A stretch of 34,162 bases of DNA, from positions 1-34,162 of the forward strand of contig VGYT01000011.1 of assembly GCA_016872895.1 (NCBI GenBank), given 5' to 3'. Each line of letters begins with the position of its first letter. Positions within the stretch are counted from its first letter, which is position 1. This document shows positions 27,721-34,162 of the stretch, piece by piece. The notes beneath the pieces were generated by a model that saw only the letters and a list, made by a program, of their open reading frames with translations, searched no databases and was not told the origin of the DNA. This DNA comes from Planctomycetota bacterium (GTDB taxonomy: Bacteria > Planctomycetota > Phycisphaerae > FEN-1346). The translations under genes were made by a program, and so were the position numbers.

Positions 27721-30700
27721 ATGATGAAAGACTCGCGCCTGTCGCGCCGCACCGGTTACAAGGGCGCCGCCAGCGGCCTGCCCGCCGCGTCCGGCGGCTT
27801 ATCCGCCTGGTCCGACGGCTTGTCCGCCTCGGCCGGAGCGTCATCCGCCGCGTCCGGCGGCAGCGTCATTTCACCCGCGTCCGGCGCCGGCGGGCGATGC
27901 TCGCGCGGCGGGTCGCCGCCGAGGAAGGCCCGCCCGCGGGTTTTCGTGCTTGCGGCCTTGTGGCTCGCCGCGTGCGCAACGCCGGCGGCGCCGGCGCGGG
28001 CGCAGACGGCCGCGACCCGATGGAGTTGGCAGATGCCCCACGCCGCCGTGGACCCGAAGGGAGACCTCGCCTGGAAACCGCAGCCGTTCGCCTTCGAGGC
28101 CGGCGCCTCGGTTCGCTACATCGATTACGAGAATGGCAACGACGCCAATCACGGCGCGGCCAAAGATGCCGCCTGGAAGCACCATCCCTGGGACCCCGAG
28201 GCCGCCGGCAAGGCCCGGGAATGCCGGGGAATACACACGTACGTTTTCAAGCGCGGCGCCGTGTACCGGGGCTGGATGACCGCCAAAGAATCCGGCAGGC
28301 CGGGCGACCCGATCCGGCTCACGAGCGACCCCGCCTGGGGCCGGGGCGACGCCGTCATCTGCGGCTCGCAGAAGGTCGCCCGATGGACGCGGGGCGCCGC
28401 CCACCCGGACATCCCCCAGCCCGAGACCGTGTGGTATGCCGACCTGGACTTCGCCCCGCGCGCCCTGTGGACCGTGGACAAGGGTGGCGGCATAGCCCGC
28501 ATTCCCCTGGCCCGCACGCCGAACTGGAAGGTGTCGAATCCCGACGACGTCAAGAGCGAGTGGTGGCACTGGGACTACAAGGGCGAGAAGCCGTTCGACG
28601 TCTTCACCACCACCAGCCGGGGCACGAAACTCCACCTCGGCATCGACACGGCCCACCTGACGAAGCCGGCGGAATACTACAACGACGCCCTCCTCTGGAC
28701 CGAGCACGGCTGGGTGATGGGCGGGCCTTACCCGGTGCGGGTCGAGGCCGTCGATACCGCAAGGCACGGCCTGGGCTTCGGCGGCCGATACGGCGCCGCC
28801 GGCTCCTACAAGATCATCCGCTTCAACCGTTACTTCCTGGAAGACAAGCCCCACTACCTCGACGACCCGGAGGGCGAGTTCTGGTTCGACCGCAAGGGCG
28901 CCGGCGGCCGCCTGTACCTCCGCCCGCCCGCAGGCGCCGACCCCAACACGCTTCACATCGAGGCGGCTCGCCACTCCAACCTGATTGACGGCGCCGGCGC
29001 AAGCCACCTGCACATCACGGGCCTGGCGTTCCGCTTCACCAATCCGCACTGGCGGCTCGACGGCGTGCCGTATCGCGAAGGGAAGGACCTGGACATCGCC
29101 TGCATCCGCATCCTGGGCGCCGCCGCCGACATCCGCGTGGCCAACTGCCTGTTCGAGCACGTCCAGGCGGCCGTTCGCATGAAGGCCGCGGGCAAGGACG
29201 ACCTGATCGACCGCGCAGTCGTTTCCGACAACGACGTCCGTTTCACCGACCGCGGCGCCTTCGACCTGGCCGAGGGCTCGGAGTGGGGAGAAAAGGAGCG
29301 CGAGACGGGCCTCCTGGGCGACGTCAAGGTCCTGCGCAACCGCCTCTTCCAGATCGGCCTGCGCCCGACGCGGTTCGAACTCGGCTTCGCCGTCAACATC
29401 CTGAACCCGCAGACGGCCGAAGTGGCCGGCAACATCGTGGACCGCTGCTACTGCGGCGGCATAAACGTGCACGGCGGAAAACGCGGCGGCGCACTGAGGG
29501 ACTGCCCCCTCTCGCGCCTCGTCATCCATCACAACAAGGTCACAGACTGCCTGCTTAGCAGCGACGACTTCGGCGGCATAGAGACCTGGCAGGGCGGCCC
29601 CGCCTACGTCTATAACAACGTCTCCGGCAACCCCGGCGGATACCGGCACTTCTACCTGCTCAATCCGAACAAGCCGGGCACCGCACGCTTCGGACACGCC
29701 TATTACCTCGACGGGGCCTTCAAGAACTACCATTTCAACAACATCGCCTGGGGCAAATCCAGCGACCCTGCCAGCCCCCTCGGCAACCGGGCCGCGTTCC
29801 AGGAAATCATCGGTTACCAGAATACTTTCTTCAATAACACCGTTTTCAACTTCGTGAAGGGCTCGCGCCGCCAGCAGCCGGAGGCCGGAAGAAACAAGTA
29901 CCTGGCCAACGTCTTCTAGGACGTCTCGCTGATGCTTCTGCGGCACGCCGACAAGTTGGGGGTCGATCCGGGCGCTCGCGGCGCAGGCGCCCAGGGGCCG
30001 CTTTTCGCATACCACACAAGCGCATATGCCGCCAACGTCCTGTACCGCATCGGCGGGGTCGTCGGCGTCTTCGAGGCCGAGGGCGGCGATTACCGAAGCC
30101 TGGGCGATCTGCGCGCGGCCCTGGCCGGGCGAAAGGCCCTCGCCGCCGACGTGGGCGTCCTCGCCGCAAGCACCCCCCTGCGGGCCCCCGAGCGCCGCGA
30201 TTTCCGTCCGGTCCCCGGTTCCGAAGTCATCAACCGCGGCGTCAAGGTCTTCGTCCCCTGGGCGCTGCACGGCGAAGTGGCTGAGTGGCACTTCTACCCT
30301 GCCGGCGACGATCCCGCCCACATCCTCGACGAGCACTGGTACCTGACGCACTACCACGTCCAGCGCCAGGACTACTACCAGCGCCCCACGTATCCGCTCA
30401 AGGCGGTCAACGTCGCTGCCGCCGACTACGGCCCCGGACCCCTGGAGGACTGGATATCCGGGGCGCTCAACCTGAACGGCCGGAACCAGTACGCCTGGAT
30501 TTCCGCCGCCAGGCTGGCCGAGCCGTTCGTCTATGCGGCGGCGCCCGAAAAAGGCGGCAACCCGCAAACCCGCACCGCCGCAGGCGAGGACCTCAAGAGC
30601 CCGCAGATGCACCGCTCCGGCCCGCTCATCGAGGCCTTTTTCAGGACGCAGCCCGGCCACACCGGCGGCGTCCTGGTCGAGAAGATGGGCCCCGCCGCCG

Positions 30701-31134
30701 GCTACTGCCTGGCGGTCAACGATAAGGGCGGCGTGACCTTCACCATCAAGGCACAAGGGGCGTCGGCAAGCATCGCCGGCCCGTCGAAGGTCAACGACGG
30801 CCGGTGGCATCACGTGGTAGCCGAGGCCGACCGCCCCGCCGCCGCGCTCGCCCTCTACATCGACGGCCGCAAGGACGCCGCCGGCCGCGGCATCGGCGCC
30901 GACGCGACGCTGGCCAATGACGCCGACCTTTACGTCGGCGGCACGCCCCAGGGCCGCTCCCTTGCCGGAGCGATAGACTTCCTTCGCATCGCCAGGGGAA
31001 CCCTCGCCGACGCCAAGACGACCATCGAGGAACTGTACGAGTGGGAATTCAACGGGCCGTTCCTGCGCGACTTCGCGGGTCGGCCGCCAGCCGGGCCTCG
31101 CCGCGACGCAGGGGCGCTTGAACTGGCGGATTAA
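27721..31134 (+). pseudogene. Right-handed beta-helix protein with C-terminal LamG/concanavalin-like domain, interrupted by a single in-frame TAG at 29917..29919
   Basis: Part 1 27721..29919: lipoprotein-like signal VFVLAALWLAACATP and beta-helix (YIDYENGNDANHGAAKDAAWKH, HIEAARHSNLIDGAGASHLHITGLAFRFTN, VLRNRLFQIGLRP). Part 2 continues in the same frame: ...KYLANVF*DVSLMLLRHADKLG..., ending in LamG-like MHRSGPLIEAFFRTQ...VNDGRWHHVVAEADRPAAALALYIDGR. Confidence 0.75.
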
Positions 31135-31330: not shown

Positions 31331-31393
31331 CCGTGACCGTGAGGGAGCGGGGCCTTCCACGCACACCACGGCGCCGCTCCCTTACGGTCGCGG
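31331..31393. repeat. Imperfect 20-bp inverted repeat CCGTGACCGTGAGGGAGCGG ... CCGCTCCCTTACGGTCGCGG
   Basis: Arms 31331..31350 and 31374..31393 match at 18 of 20 positions when one is reverse-complemented. Confidence 0.85.
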
Positions 31394-32026
31394 ACCTGCT
31401 TCGACGGCCTCATCCGCAGACGCGCGGTCCGCGACTACACCGATTTGGCCCGCCGCGGAATTGTTGACGATGCCCCTCTCAGGGGAGCGCCCCGGCAGCG
31501 GTCTGTAGTCAACGTTGTATGTATTCGCCCCCAGGTTCCGGGGCACCGGCCGCGTGGTAAGGGCTGCCGTCGTGAGCACCATGTCGGAGACGTTCGCCAC
31601 GTCGCAGGCCAACTGGCTCCGCCGGCCGGTCAGAAGAAGGCTCGCGAGGTCGCCCAGGCCCTCAAAGATGCTCCCCGGGGCGCCCAGGCCCGGCACGTCC
31701 CGCAGGCCCTCCACGGTCTTGTTGATGCCGAGCAGGAAGTCGCCGTAGCCCTTGGCGGTCATCGCATTCGGGAACGCCGTTGATGACGCCGACAAAAACT
31801 CCACGTATCCCTCGAAGATGCCTGCGACGCCGCGCTCGACCTTCTCCAGGTCCAGCAGGCCGCTCGGATCGACCGTGTCCGCCGGGCTGGCGCCACAGTA
31901 GGCGTAGACGTTCGGCCCGGCGGCCAGGCCGACGGGGTCAACCTGCACGAACCGGCCCAGGGTGCAATGATACTCCCTGGCGTCGGTGTGATACAAGCCC
32001 GATTCCGCGTCCAGGCCGTAGCCGCC
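31382..32026 (-). pseudogene. Displaced RHS tip: partial RHS core plus pre-toxin region, no upstream RHS body
   Basis: GGYGLDAESGLYHTDAREYHCTLGRFVQVDPVGLAAGPNVYAYCGASPADTVDPSGLLDLEKV; parallel to the core of 32666..34000. Its only Met (YHTDAREY, 31996) is internal to the core. Confidence 0.85.
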
Positions 32027-32662
32027 CTACTTGACGCGCTGCAAGCGGAAGATGATGTCTTCGAAGTCGTCATCCGGCTCGCCATCGTTACACCGATATC
32101 GCCGGCCGTTGGGAATCTCCTCTACTATCATCGCCGCCCCGTTGAGCCAGAAATCCACGACGCCGTTGCCACAGTCCCATGCATTGTAGATGCGTATCAC
32201 AGATGCGCCGCCGAGCACCTCGAAATCCACGGTGTCCCAGTCTTGGGACTGCCAAAACAAGATTCCATCTTTTCCGCCCGCAAACTTGCCACCAACGGCA
32301 ATCTGCCCCTCGTTCCCTTGGCCGGCGCCCTTGTGCCACTTACCCTTACGGCCCTTAAAGACCAAAGCCACAGATACCGCCTGCCTCCACTTGCCCGGAG
32401 GCTCCAGGTTTCTCCACGGGGCAAGCCCGTCCACCGATGTGCGAAAAAATCGCCCATCGGCGGTGCGATTCTCCCGGCCCCGACCCGGGCTCCACGCACT
32501 TGCCGAATCCTGCCGAACGGGATTCCCATTGCAGGTTTCAATGACAAGGCGAAACTTGTTCGCGCCCTGTGTCGGGAAGTAGTCACACATCACCAATGTA
32601 TTGCCCTTGTACTGAACAGGTTGGCCACGCGACTGCTCAAACATGGACTGAAATTCTGGCAC
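32027..32662 (-). CDS. Unrecognised 211-aa protein, candidate immunity protein for the upstream RHS toxin tip
   Basis: Starts 3 nt after the toxin-tip stop on the same strand, no signal peptide, visibly lower GC than flanking genes, no family recognised. Position is that of an RHS immunity gene. Confidence 0.65.
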   Translation of the reverse strand: MPEFQSMFEQSRGQPVQYKGNTLVMCDYFPTQGANKFRLVIETCNGNPVRQDSASAWSPGRGRENRTADGRFFRTSVDGLAPWRNLEPPGKWRQAVSVALVFKGRKGKWHKGAGQGNEGQIAVGGKFAGGKDGILFWQSQDWDTVDFEVLGGASVIRIYNAWDCGNGVVDFWLNGAAMIVEEIPNGRRYRCNDGEPDDDFEDIIFRLQRVK

Positions 32663-32665
32663 AGT

Positions 32666-34000
32666 CTATCTCCCGCTGCCATAGTGGATTTCCCAATGTT
32701 GCGCTGGCCACATCGGTTCCACGTCGAAAAGCCCGCCCGCACTTTGCGGGGGATTGTGGTGAAGATGCATGCTTTCGAGAACGCCGGTCTCTGGATTCAT
32801 CTGCTGCGGAGCGAGCCCGTGCCGCATGCGCGCCAGGTCTTGAGGCTTGTACTTCCCTGGCTTGTAGAACGCCTCGTTCTTCCAAAACCGTTGCCGAACT
32901 GTGCTCACCGATGGCGCGTTCCCCTTGGCCGTCAAGTTGTTAATCGGTTGTCCAACCTTCCAGCCCCGCGTTGTGTTGGCTACCGTGGGGTTGGCGGAAC
33001 GGACACCGTTCGCGCCCCTAGCAACAGTCGCGCCCCTGCCCCACGCGCACGCCGCACCCGAAAGCGCCGCGTCCAGGAGCATCCCTGCCGCCCTGGTCTC
33101 CTGGAGGGGCGCGCCTGTCAGCCGGCTCACCAGGTCCCCGACCGCCTGGCCTACGTTGGCCGGCGCGCCAGGACCGGCCTCGTCCCGGAAGCCCTCGCGA
33201 ATCTTGTTCAGGCCCAGGGCGTAATCGGCCACGCCCTTGGCAAGCAGCGCGATGTTCCCCGTTCCCGGCGTGGTCGAGGGCAGGCCGCAGAGTATCTCGA
33301 TCGCGCCCTCGCCCACGCCCCACAACCCCTGCATCACCTTCTCAAGGCCTATGAGGCCGCTGGGGTCGACCGTGTCCACCGGGCTGTTGGCGCAGTAGGC
33401 GTAGACATTCGGCCCGGCGGCCGGGCCGAGGGGGTCAACCTGCACGAACCGGCCCAGGGTGCAATGATACTCGCGGGCGTCGGTGTGATACAAGCCGGAT
33501 TCCGCGTCAAAGCCGTAGCCGCCGTAGAGAATCTCATTCTGGAGCGAGCCGGACCAGGACATTTCGTCCCACGAGTCATCCGCGAACTGCGGCCGGCCGT
33601 AGGCGTCATAAAAATACCGCTCGGCCACCGCGCCCGTGGCCGCATCCACCAGGGCGGTGGTGTTCCAGTTGGCATCGTGCGTGTAATAGAGGACGTTGTC
33701 TTCTTCGTCCGCGTAATCGCCGTCGGTGTTGCCGTCGCGGAACCGGACGACCGGCGCCTTGGCGTACCGCACGTCCCAGACGTACCGGTCGAGCGGGTCG
33801 GGGGCGCCGCCCGCGCGGGTCTCAAGCACCTGCCGGTCTTCGTTGAAGTAATAGTCATAGGTTACGCCGGGCGCGCCCCCGACGGTCTTCCGGATGCGGC
33901 GGCCGAGGCCGTCGTATTGATACGCGGCCAGGAGCGTGTCGTCGCCTTCCGGCTCGAACTGGCCGTCGCCGTCGTCCTGCCAGGCGGCCGGCGCCATCAT
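32666..34000 (-). CDS. RHS/YD-repeat protein C-terminal part with HNH/EndoVII-like (LHH-type) nuclease toxin tip; 5' end disrupted
   Basis: YQYDGLGRRIRKTVGGAPGVTYDYYFNEDRQVLETR...RYVWDVRYAKAPVVRFRD...YTHDANWNTTALVDAATGAVAERYFYDAYGRPQ, core GRFVQVDPLGPAAGPNVYAYCANSPVDTVDPSG, then tip ...MNPETGVLESMHLHHNPPQSAGGLFDVEPMWPAQHWEIHYGSGR. Confidence 0.87.
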   Translation of the reverse strand: MMAPAAWQDDGDGQFEPEGDDTLLAAYQYDGLGRRIRKTVGGAPGVTYDYYFNEDRQVLETRAGGAPDPLDRYVWDVRYAKAPVVRFRDGNTDGDYADEEDNVLYYTHDANWNTTALVDAATGAVAERYFYDAYGRPQFADDSWDEMSWSGSLQNEILYGGYGFDAESGLYHTDAREYHCTLGRFVQVDPLGPAAGPNVYAYCANSPVDTVDPSGLIGLEKVMQGLWGVGEGAIEILCGLPSTTPGTGNIALLAKGVADYALGLNKIREGFRDEAGPGAPANVGQAVGDLVSRLTGAPLQETRAAGMLLDAALSGAACAWGRGATVARGANGVRSANPTVANTTRGWKVGQPINNLTAKGNAPSVSTVRQRFWKNEAFYKPGKYKPQDLARMRHGLAPQQMNPETGVLESMHLHHNPPQSAGGLFDVEPMWPAQHWEIHYGSGR

Positions 34001-34059
34001 AAGCGTACGCGTGAACCCACGCCGCGCTGGTCGGTGACGGCGGTCTCGCGGCCGAGGCG

Positions 34060-34136
34060 GTCCGCACCGATTCGACCAACGCCCAGTACGTGTGCCGCTT
34101 GCGCCCCTTGCGCCGCTCGCATCGCCGCAGGAACAT
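34060..34136 (-). mobile_element. N-terminal fragment of an IS1634-like transposase fused to RHS sequence
   Basis: MFLRRCERRKGRKRHTYWALVESVRT resembles the N-terminus of planctomycete IS1634/IS4-like transposases (from memory). It then switches to RHS-like DRLGRETAVTDQRG in another frame. Confidence 0.5.
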
Positions 34137-34162
34137 CCCTCTCTCCCGTCAACTCGCCGGCT

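What the first reader, a model, noticed from the sequence alone, without database searches (positions are those of the whole stretch)
32027..34000. RHS HNH-nuclease toxin tip with an unrecognised, tightly coupled candidate immunity gene
Seen: RHS core followed by a variable tip ending MHLHHNPPQSAGGLFDVEPMWPAQHWEIHYGSGR, then after 3 nt a 211-aa ORF of lower GC with no recognised family. Established: RHS and other polymorphic toxins carry C-terminal HNH/EndoVII nucleases (LHH, AHH, WHH, GHH classes) encoded directly before their immunity gene. Inference: 32027..32662 is a new immunity family specific for this nuclease.
Basis: partly seen in the sequence, partly recalled or inferred. Interest (0 to 1): 0.75.

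Follow-up and report, generated by a model that had tools for sequence, protein, structure and literature searches.

The report
RHS DNase toxin with unnamed immunity partner
A planctomycete RHS gene ends in a colicin-like DNA-cutting toxin tip and is followed at once by a gene from an unnamed protein family that sits beside the same kind of toxin in several other bacterial groups, so it is very probably the antidote; this is a new antidote family for a known kind of weapon, and its effect has not been tested.

Summary
On the minus strand an RHS core (TIGR03696) ends in a 100-aa tip; the stop codon is followed after 3 nt by a 211-aa GTG-start ORF (32027-32662) that the searched Pfam, NCBIfam and PDB-sequence libraries do not recognise. 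A profile of nine tips matches colicin E7 DNase at E = 4e-12, so the tip is a beta-beta-alpha-metal (HNH) nuclease on the colicin-E/Tox-LHH border. The 211-aa protein belongs to an unnamed, predicted all-beta family. It lies 42 nt or less downstream of the same tip in nine other loci (Planctomycetota, Chlamydiota, Chloroflexota, Gammaproteobacteria) and beside a tip remnant in a tenth. Tip and partner divergence correlate (Mantel r = 0.73, p = 0.0005). Best reading: a cognate immunity gene of an uncatalogued family, swapped as a cassette; an RHS-core repeat and a displaced older tip lie just downstream. Limits: half of the copies found by immunity search stand alone; some tips have unrelated partners; inhibition is inferred. 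In this copy a Glu conserved in the nine compared tips is His, and the RHS frame appears shifted twice within 180 nt of the contig end, so this toxin may be inactive. It is a new member of a known kind.

The parts
33353..33610 (-). RHS repeat-associated core domain
   Evidence: TIGR03696 E 3.1e-19, 69.2 bits (cut-off 32.5), residues 131-216 of the 444-aa ORF; ends at DPSGL
32969..33352 (-). Linker between RHS core and toxin tip (GC 0.71), similar in sequence to the linker of the displaced tip downstream
   Evidence: GC; similarity read from the two ORF translations
32666..32968 (-). Toxin tip, 100 aa plus stop: colicin-E/LHH-type HNH (beta-beta-alpha-metal) nuclease; LHH and HxxxH present, conserved Glu replaced by His
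   Evidence: phmmer colicin E7 E 5e-4; tip profile vs colicin E7 E 4e-12; Col-Pyo_DNase PF21431 E 6e-4, below cut-off; alignments A2
32670..32674 (-). GGGAG, likely ribosome-binding site of the 211-aa gene, inside the last toxin codons
   Evidence: sequence of the junction
32027..32662 (-). Candidate immunity gene, 211 aa, GTG start, predicted all-beta protein of an unnamed family
   Evidence: no Pfam/NCBIfam/PDB-sequence family; relatives behind the same tip elsewhere; AlphaFold2 pLDDT 76, pTM 0.76
32390..32521 (-). Insert of about 44 aa (residues 48-91) found only in this copy; mostly predicted disordered; single copy in the genome
   Evidence: alignments A3/A9; pLDDT < 50 for residues 53-89; DNA search of own genome
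31839..32029 (-). Second copy of the end of the RHS core, starting at the stop codon of the 211-aa gene: footprint of cassette displacement
   Evidence: direct repeat D1, 191 nt, 89% identical to 33336-33526
31382..32026 (-). Displaced (orphan) RHS core fragment and older tip; tip family not identified
   Evidence: TIGR03696 E 2e-12 in ORF 31382-31996; no Pfam match

Best explanation
The pair is the variable end of an RHS polymorphic-toxin gene plus its cognate immunity gene. Shown: the tip is homologous to colicin-E DNases; the 211-aa gene follows it at once, with its ribosome-binding site inside the toxin's last codons; relatives of the two genes are adjacent in many bacteria and diverge together; an RHS-core repeat and an older tip lie directly downstream, as expected if the tip-immunity unit was swapped in as a cassette. 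Inferred: the tip is delivered into neighbouring cells by the RHS protein and cuts DNA with a metal-bound histidine active site; the 211-aa protein, a predicted all-beta protein, stays in the producer's cytoplasm and neutralises the nuclease by tight binding over or beside its positively charged DNA-binding face. In this copy the toxin may already be weakened or dead, because the conserved Glu of the ELHH motif is His and the RHS frame seems broken near the contig end.
For: Tip fold: phmmer to colicin E7 E 5e-4; nine-tip profile to colicin E7 E 4e-12, aligning the ELHH motif and the distal His; tip-plus-partner model has strand-strand-helix at the motif and its likeliest PDB match is colicin E9 DNase (2wpt_B, probability 0.92, TM 0.47 on the target, E 0.34). 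Coupling: gaps of -4 to 42 nt in ten pairs: window; L002; Simkania plasmid pSn (L020); Methylobacter plasmid (L021); Chlamydiae MAG RHS (L024); Botrimarina (L025); Anaerolineae MAG (L026); L014, L015; L039; plus L036 with a truncated tip. Tip-first searches also lead to the family: 5 of 8 tip loci. Mantel r 0.73, p 0.0005. Tips are basic (pI 8.1-10.7); six of ten partners have pI 5.6 or lower. Cassette footprint. Precedent for orphan rhs-CT/rhsI modules: PMC3967940.
Against: No toxicity, binding or rescue data. The tip alone is below the curated cut-offs of PF21431 and PF14411. 7 of 14 family copies found by immunity-first searches have no tip in reach (L027-L031, L037, L038), and three tips have unrelated downstream genes (L013, L022, L023). 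The fused toxin-partner model gives pTM 0.58 and no verified interface. The window's 211-aa protein is about neutral (pI 7.6), unlike the acidic colicin immunity proteins (background knowledge). Shared descent of linked genes would also give a positive Mantel correlation.
Confidence: 0.87

Rival explanations
1. The 211-aa family is an accessory protein (chaperone, adaptor or second effector) of RHS toxins rather than the immunity protein.
For: Lone copies exist away from toxins; a weak DUF4114 similarity of one relative (E 0.0016, below cut-off) points to a domain otherwise seen in surface proteins; no tested immunity function.
Against: It sits downstream of the tip, in the immunity position, also where the tip is not on an RHS protein (Simkania) or is only a fragment (L002, L025), so it tracks the nuclease and not the delivery part; in the linked loci no other gene lies between; in L036 the toxin is truncated but the partner kept intact, as expected for immunity.
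Confidence: 0.07
2. The 211-aa ORF is a recombination by-product or decayed gene in a dead cassette with no present function.
For: Conserved Glu replaced by His in the tip, apparent frame shifts upstream, a 44-aa mostly disordered insert seen only in this copy.
Against: The ORF is intact with a ribosome-binding site and keeps the family's most conserved residues (W137, N160, C191); it is 54% identical to the Botrimarina partner; the frame shifts lie within 180 nt of a contig end, where assembly errors are common. Decay of the toxin would not change the identity of the partner family.
Confidence: 0.05
3. Chance adjacency of a hypothetical gene with an RHS tip.
For: None beyond the existence of lone copies.
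Against: Ten adjacent pairs on the same strand with gaps of 42 nt or less, in four phyla, with correlated divergence.
Confidence: 0.01

Closest known systems
Colicin E7/E9 and pyocin S DNases (Pfam PF21431 Col-Pyo_DNase; Tox-ColE7 of PMC3482391)
   Same: Homologous nuclease domain; the conserved tryptophan, RM-x-GxAP, LHH and distal His positions of the tip family align with colicin E7
   Different: On the end of an RHS protein, not a diffusible bacteriocin; partner is a predicted beta protein, not the helical Im protein; window tip scores 20.4 bits, below the 27-bit cut-off
Tox-LHH (Pfam PF14411)
   Same: LHH motif; several relatives of the tip pass the cut-off (L002 28.1, L022 31.3, L023 38.7 bits)
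   Different: Window tip 11.6 bits, below 23.3; the survey PMC3482391 lists only Imm-SUKH as partner of Tox-LHH
Orphan rhs-CT/rhsI modules of Salmonella and other enterobacteria (PMC3967940)
   Same: Displaced core fragment plus tip downstream of the main toxin-immunity pair, sharing a core repeat
   Different: Planctomycete-type locus; repeat 191 nt at 89% instead of 522 nt at 95%; no immunity gene recognised for the orphan
DUF4114 (Pfam PF13448)
   Same: C-terminal D-rich motif (NDGxxDxDFDDxxF) resembles the end of DUF4114; Simkania relative E 0.0016
   Different: Below the cut-off and only 1 of 18 family members matches; not a membership

Membership tests
RHS polymorphic toxin | RHS repeat-associated core ending in DPxGL, followed by a variable tip | tested here: met
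   TIGR03696 69.2 bits vs cut-off 32.5; DPSGL in the translation
RHS polymorphic toxin | Complete gene with delivery/N-terminal part | not testable with these tools
   Contig ends at 34162; RHS-like peptides in three frames near the end
Colicin/pyocin DNase (PF21431) | Score above the curated cut-off | tested here: not met
   20.4 bits vs 27; homology still supported by the profile match, E 4e-12
Colicin/pyocin DNase (PF21431) | HH ... N ... HxxxH active-site motif with the preceding Glu | tested here: inconclusive
   HH and HxxxH present, Glu replaced by His in the window; relatives have Glu, and several have SH or HxxxD
Tox-LHH (PF14411) | Score above the curated cut-off | tested here: not met
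   11.6 bits vs 23.3 for the window; met by L002, L022, L023
Cognate immunity protein of an HNH toxin | Gene directly downstream of the toxin in independent genomes | tested here: met
   Ten pairs, gaps -4 to 42 nt; remnant in L036
Cognate immunity protein of an HNH toxin | Co-divergence with the toxin | tested here: met
   Mantel r 0.73, p 0.0005, ten pairs, not corrected for shared descent
Cognate immunity protein of an HNH toxin | Binds and neutralises the toxin | not testable with these tools
   Needs expression; fused model gives no verified interface
Known immunity families (Imm, SUKH, SuFu, colicin Im and others in Pfam/NCBIfam) | Match to any curated model | tested here: not met
   No match at E <= 1 for the window; no immunity family for 18 family members in Pfam
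DUF4114 | Score above the curated cut-off | tested here: not met
   Best 19.8 bits vs 27 in one relative, none in the window

The most novel reading that the evidence does not exclude
The partner family is a beta-sandwich related to DUF4114-type surface domains that has been turned into an intracellular DNase inhibitor: an immunity fold not used by the known colicin-type DNase antidotes, paired with this nuclease class across at least four phyla.
Probability: 0.25. Interest if true: 0.5.

Novelty: new member of a known kind. Interest (0 to 1): 0.4.

Why it matters
It adds an uncatalogued immunity family, with a definable profile and many natural pairs, to the best-studied DNase toxin class, and suggests a function for 'hypothetical protein' genes in Planctomycetota, Chlamydiota, Chloroflexota and Gammaproteobacteria. 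Because colicin DNase-immunity pairs are a reference system for protein-protein recognition, a second and apparently unrelated inhibitor fold for a homologous nuclease would allow a direct comparison of how such nucleases can be blocked. The concept itself (new immunity family beside a polymorphic toxin) is well established.

Tried and rejected
Fold search of the partner model: no significant match in PDB or viral models (best E 0.11 and 0.025, low TM), so no fold name is claimed. Profile of 18 partners against PDB sequences: nothing. Serum amyloid P, Helios and RNase hits of the single sequence (E 0.65 or more) rejected as chance. Tip-search hits L016-L019 rejected because the tip profile does not find them at E <= 0.01. 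A spread-out mobile repeat as the origin of the 44-aa insert was rejected (one copy in the genome). The paper on pyocin S8 was not held, so only its title is used, as cited in PMC9990079.

Full report
What is there. On the minus strand an RHS ORF (32666-34000, open to the contig end) carries a significant RHS core (TIGR03696, E 3e-19) that ends in DPSGL, a linker, and a 100-aa tip; its TAG stop is followed by ACT and then the GTG of a 211-aa ORF in the same frame, with GGGAG 7 nt upstream. Tip and partner have GC of about 0.58, core and linker 0.68-0.71. The 211-aa protein has no match in Pfam or NCBIfam at E <= 1, and only chance hits in PDB sequences.

The tip. Alone it finds colicin E7 DNase (E 5e-4) and Col-Pyo_DNase (E 6e-4, below cut-off). 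A profile of nine related tips (A2) finds colicin E7 at E 4e-12 and other colicin/pyocin DNases. Several relatives also pass the LHH cut-off. The tip is therefore an HNH nuclease on the border of the colicin-E and LHH classes. The active-site pattern of DNase bacteriocins is HHX14NX8HX3H (PMC5536347). The window keeps HH and HxxxH, but the Glu of ELHH, present in the nine other tips aligned, is His. A study of pyocin S8, cited in PMC9990079, reports in its title that a glutamate of the motif is essential for DNase activity (paper not read; that it is the same Glu is my inference). Four relatives (L014, L015, L021, L039) have SH for HH.

The partner family. Phylum and class searches, a genome-collection scan and plasmid searches gave 18 distinct loci (alignment A9). 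Ten have an intact tip directly upstream with gaps of -4 to 42 nt: the window; L002; L014; L015; Simkania plasmid pSn (WP_041418583 + WP_013934983); a Methylobacter plasmid RHS (WP_268121084 + WP_194972257); a Chlamydiae MAG RHS; Botrimarina hoheduenensis; an Anaerolineae MAG; and L039. In L036 only the last part of the tip remains, joined to the RHS core, while the partner is intact. Seven are lone: L027, L028, L029, L030, L031, L037, L038. Counting only loci found by searching with the partner, 7 of 14 are linked; counting tip loci found by searching with the tip, 5 of 8 have this partner (L013, L022, L023 do not). In the linked cases the toxin is always this nuclease type, on RHS proteins, on a non-RHS protein (Simkania) or on orphan fragments.

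Coupling. Pairwise divergence of tips and partners correlates (Mantel r 0.73, p 0.0005 in 20,000 permutations). This is not corrected for shared descent of linked genes, but the pairs come from four phyla and do not simply follow taxonomy (Chlamydiae and Planctomycetota pairs interleave).

Structure. AlphaFold2 with eight sequences gives an all-beta model (pLDDT 76, pTM 0.76); residues 53-89, most of an insert present only in this copy, are disordered. No library structure matches significantly. One relative shows a sub-threshold DUF4114 match over the C-terminal acidic motif. A model of tip and partner read as one chain through the shared frame (TAG as residue) gives a strand-strand-helix at the HNH motif, and its likeliest PDB match is colicin E9 DNase (probability 0.92, E 0.34), but overall confidence is low (pTM 0.58) and no interface is claimed.

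Cassette history. Exactly at the stop codon of the 211-aa gene begins a second copy of the end of the RHS core (191 nt, 89% identical), followed by a different tip with a similar linker. This is the arrangement of orphan rhs-CT modules, which resemble displaced fragments of full-length rhs genes (PMC3967940). The Anaerolineae locus shows the same order: tip, partner, RHS core. The genome holds other RHS loci, including an array on contig 99.

Mechanism. Most likely: contact-delivered DNase plus cytoplasmic immunity protein that binds the nuclease. Homology, adjacency and co-divergence are shown; delivery, cleavage and inhibition are inferred. The basic tips and often acidic partners fit binding near the DNA-contact face, but the window's own partner is about neutral.

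State of this copy. Besides the Glu-to-His change, RHS-like peptides occur in three different frames between about 33980 and 34070, so the upstream frame seems shifted twice within 180 nt of the contig end. Whether this is decay or an assembly error cannot be told here. The identification of the partner family does not depend on it.

Novelty. The polymorphic-toxin survey lists Imm-ColE7 and SUKH for Tox-ColE7 and SUKH for Tox-LHH (PMC3482391). That structurally unrelated immunity proteins can block one class of beta-beta-alpha-metal DNase is known (Tde5 with Tdi5a and Tdi5b, PMC13392607). This is therefore a new immunity family of a known kind.

Noticed in passing
window 33980-34162: RHS-like peptides in all three minus-strand frames: the RHS frame appears shifted twice close to the contig end (decay or assembly error).
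   Followed up: partly
window 31382-32026: Displaced RHS core fragment with an older tip that matches no Pfam family; no immunity gene for it was recognised.
   Followed up: partly
G000 contigs C99, C21, C128, C147 (loci L042-L050): The genome carries several other RHS loci, among them an array of core fragments on C99 and an open frame of 4866 aa on C21.
   Followed up: no
L036:431-1962: RHS core fused to only the last 25 or so residues of the nuclease tip, with an intact partner gene behind it: toxin lost, antidote kept.
   Followed up: partly
L014, L015, L021, L039 tips: Subgroup with SH in place of HH in the active-site motif, paired with the more divergent partner subgroup.
   Followed up: partly
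L031:2905-3330 (Priestia koreensis plasmid): Lone family member in a stretch with a SuFu-domain gene, a NADAR gene and an HNH endonuclease gene; looks like an immunity island.
   Followed up: no
L022:2827-3294 and L023:2818-3405: Unrelated hypothetical proteins in the immunity position behind the same class of tip: further candidate immunity families without a Pfam or NCBIfam name.
   Followed up: no
window 29932-31134 (+): Laminin-G-type lectin domain protein (PF13385, E 1e-14).
   Followed up: no
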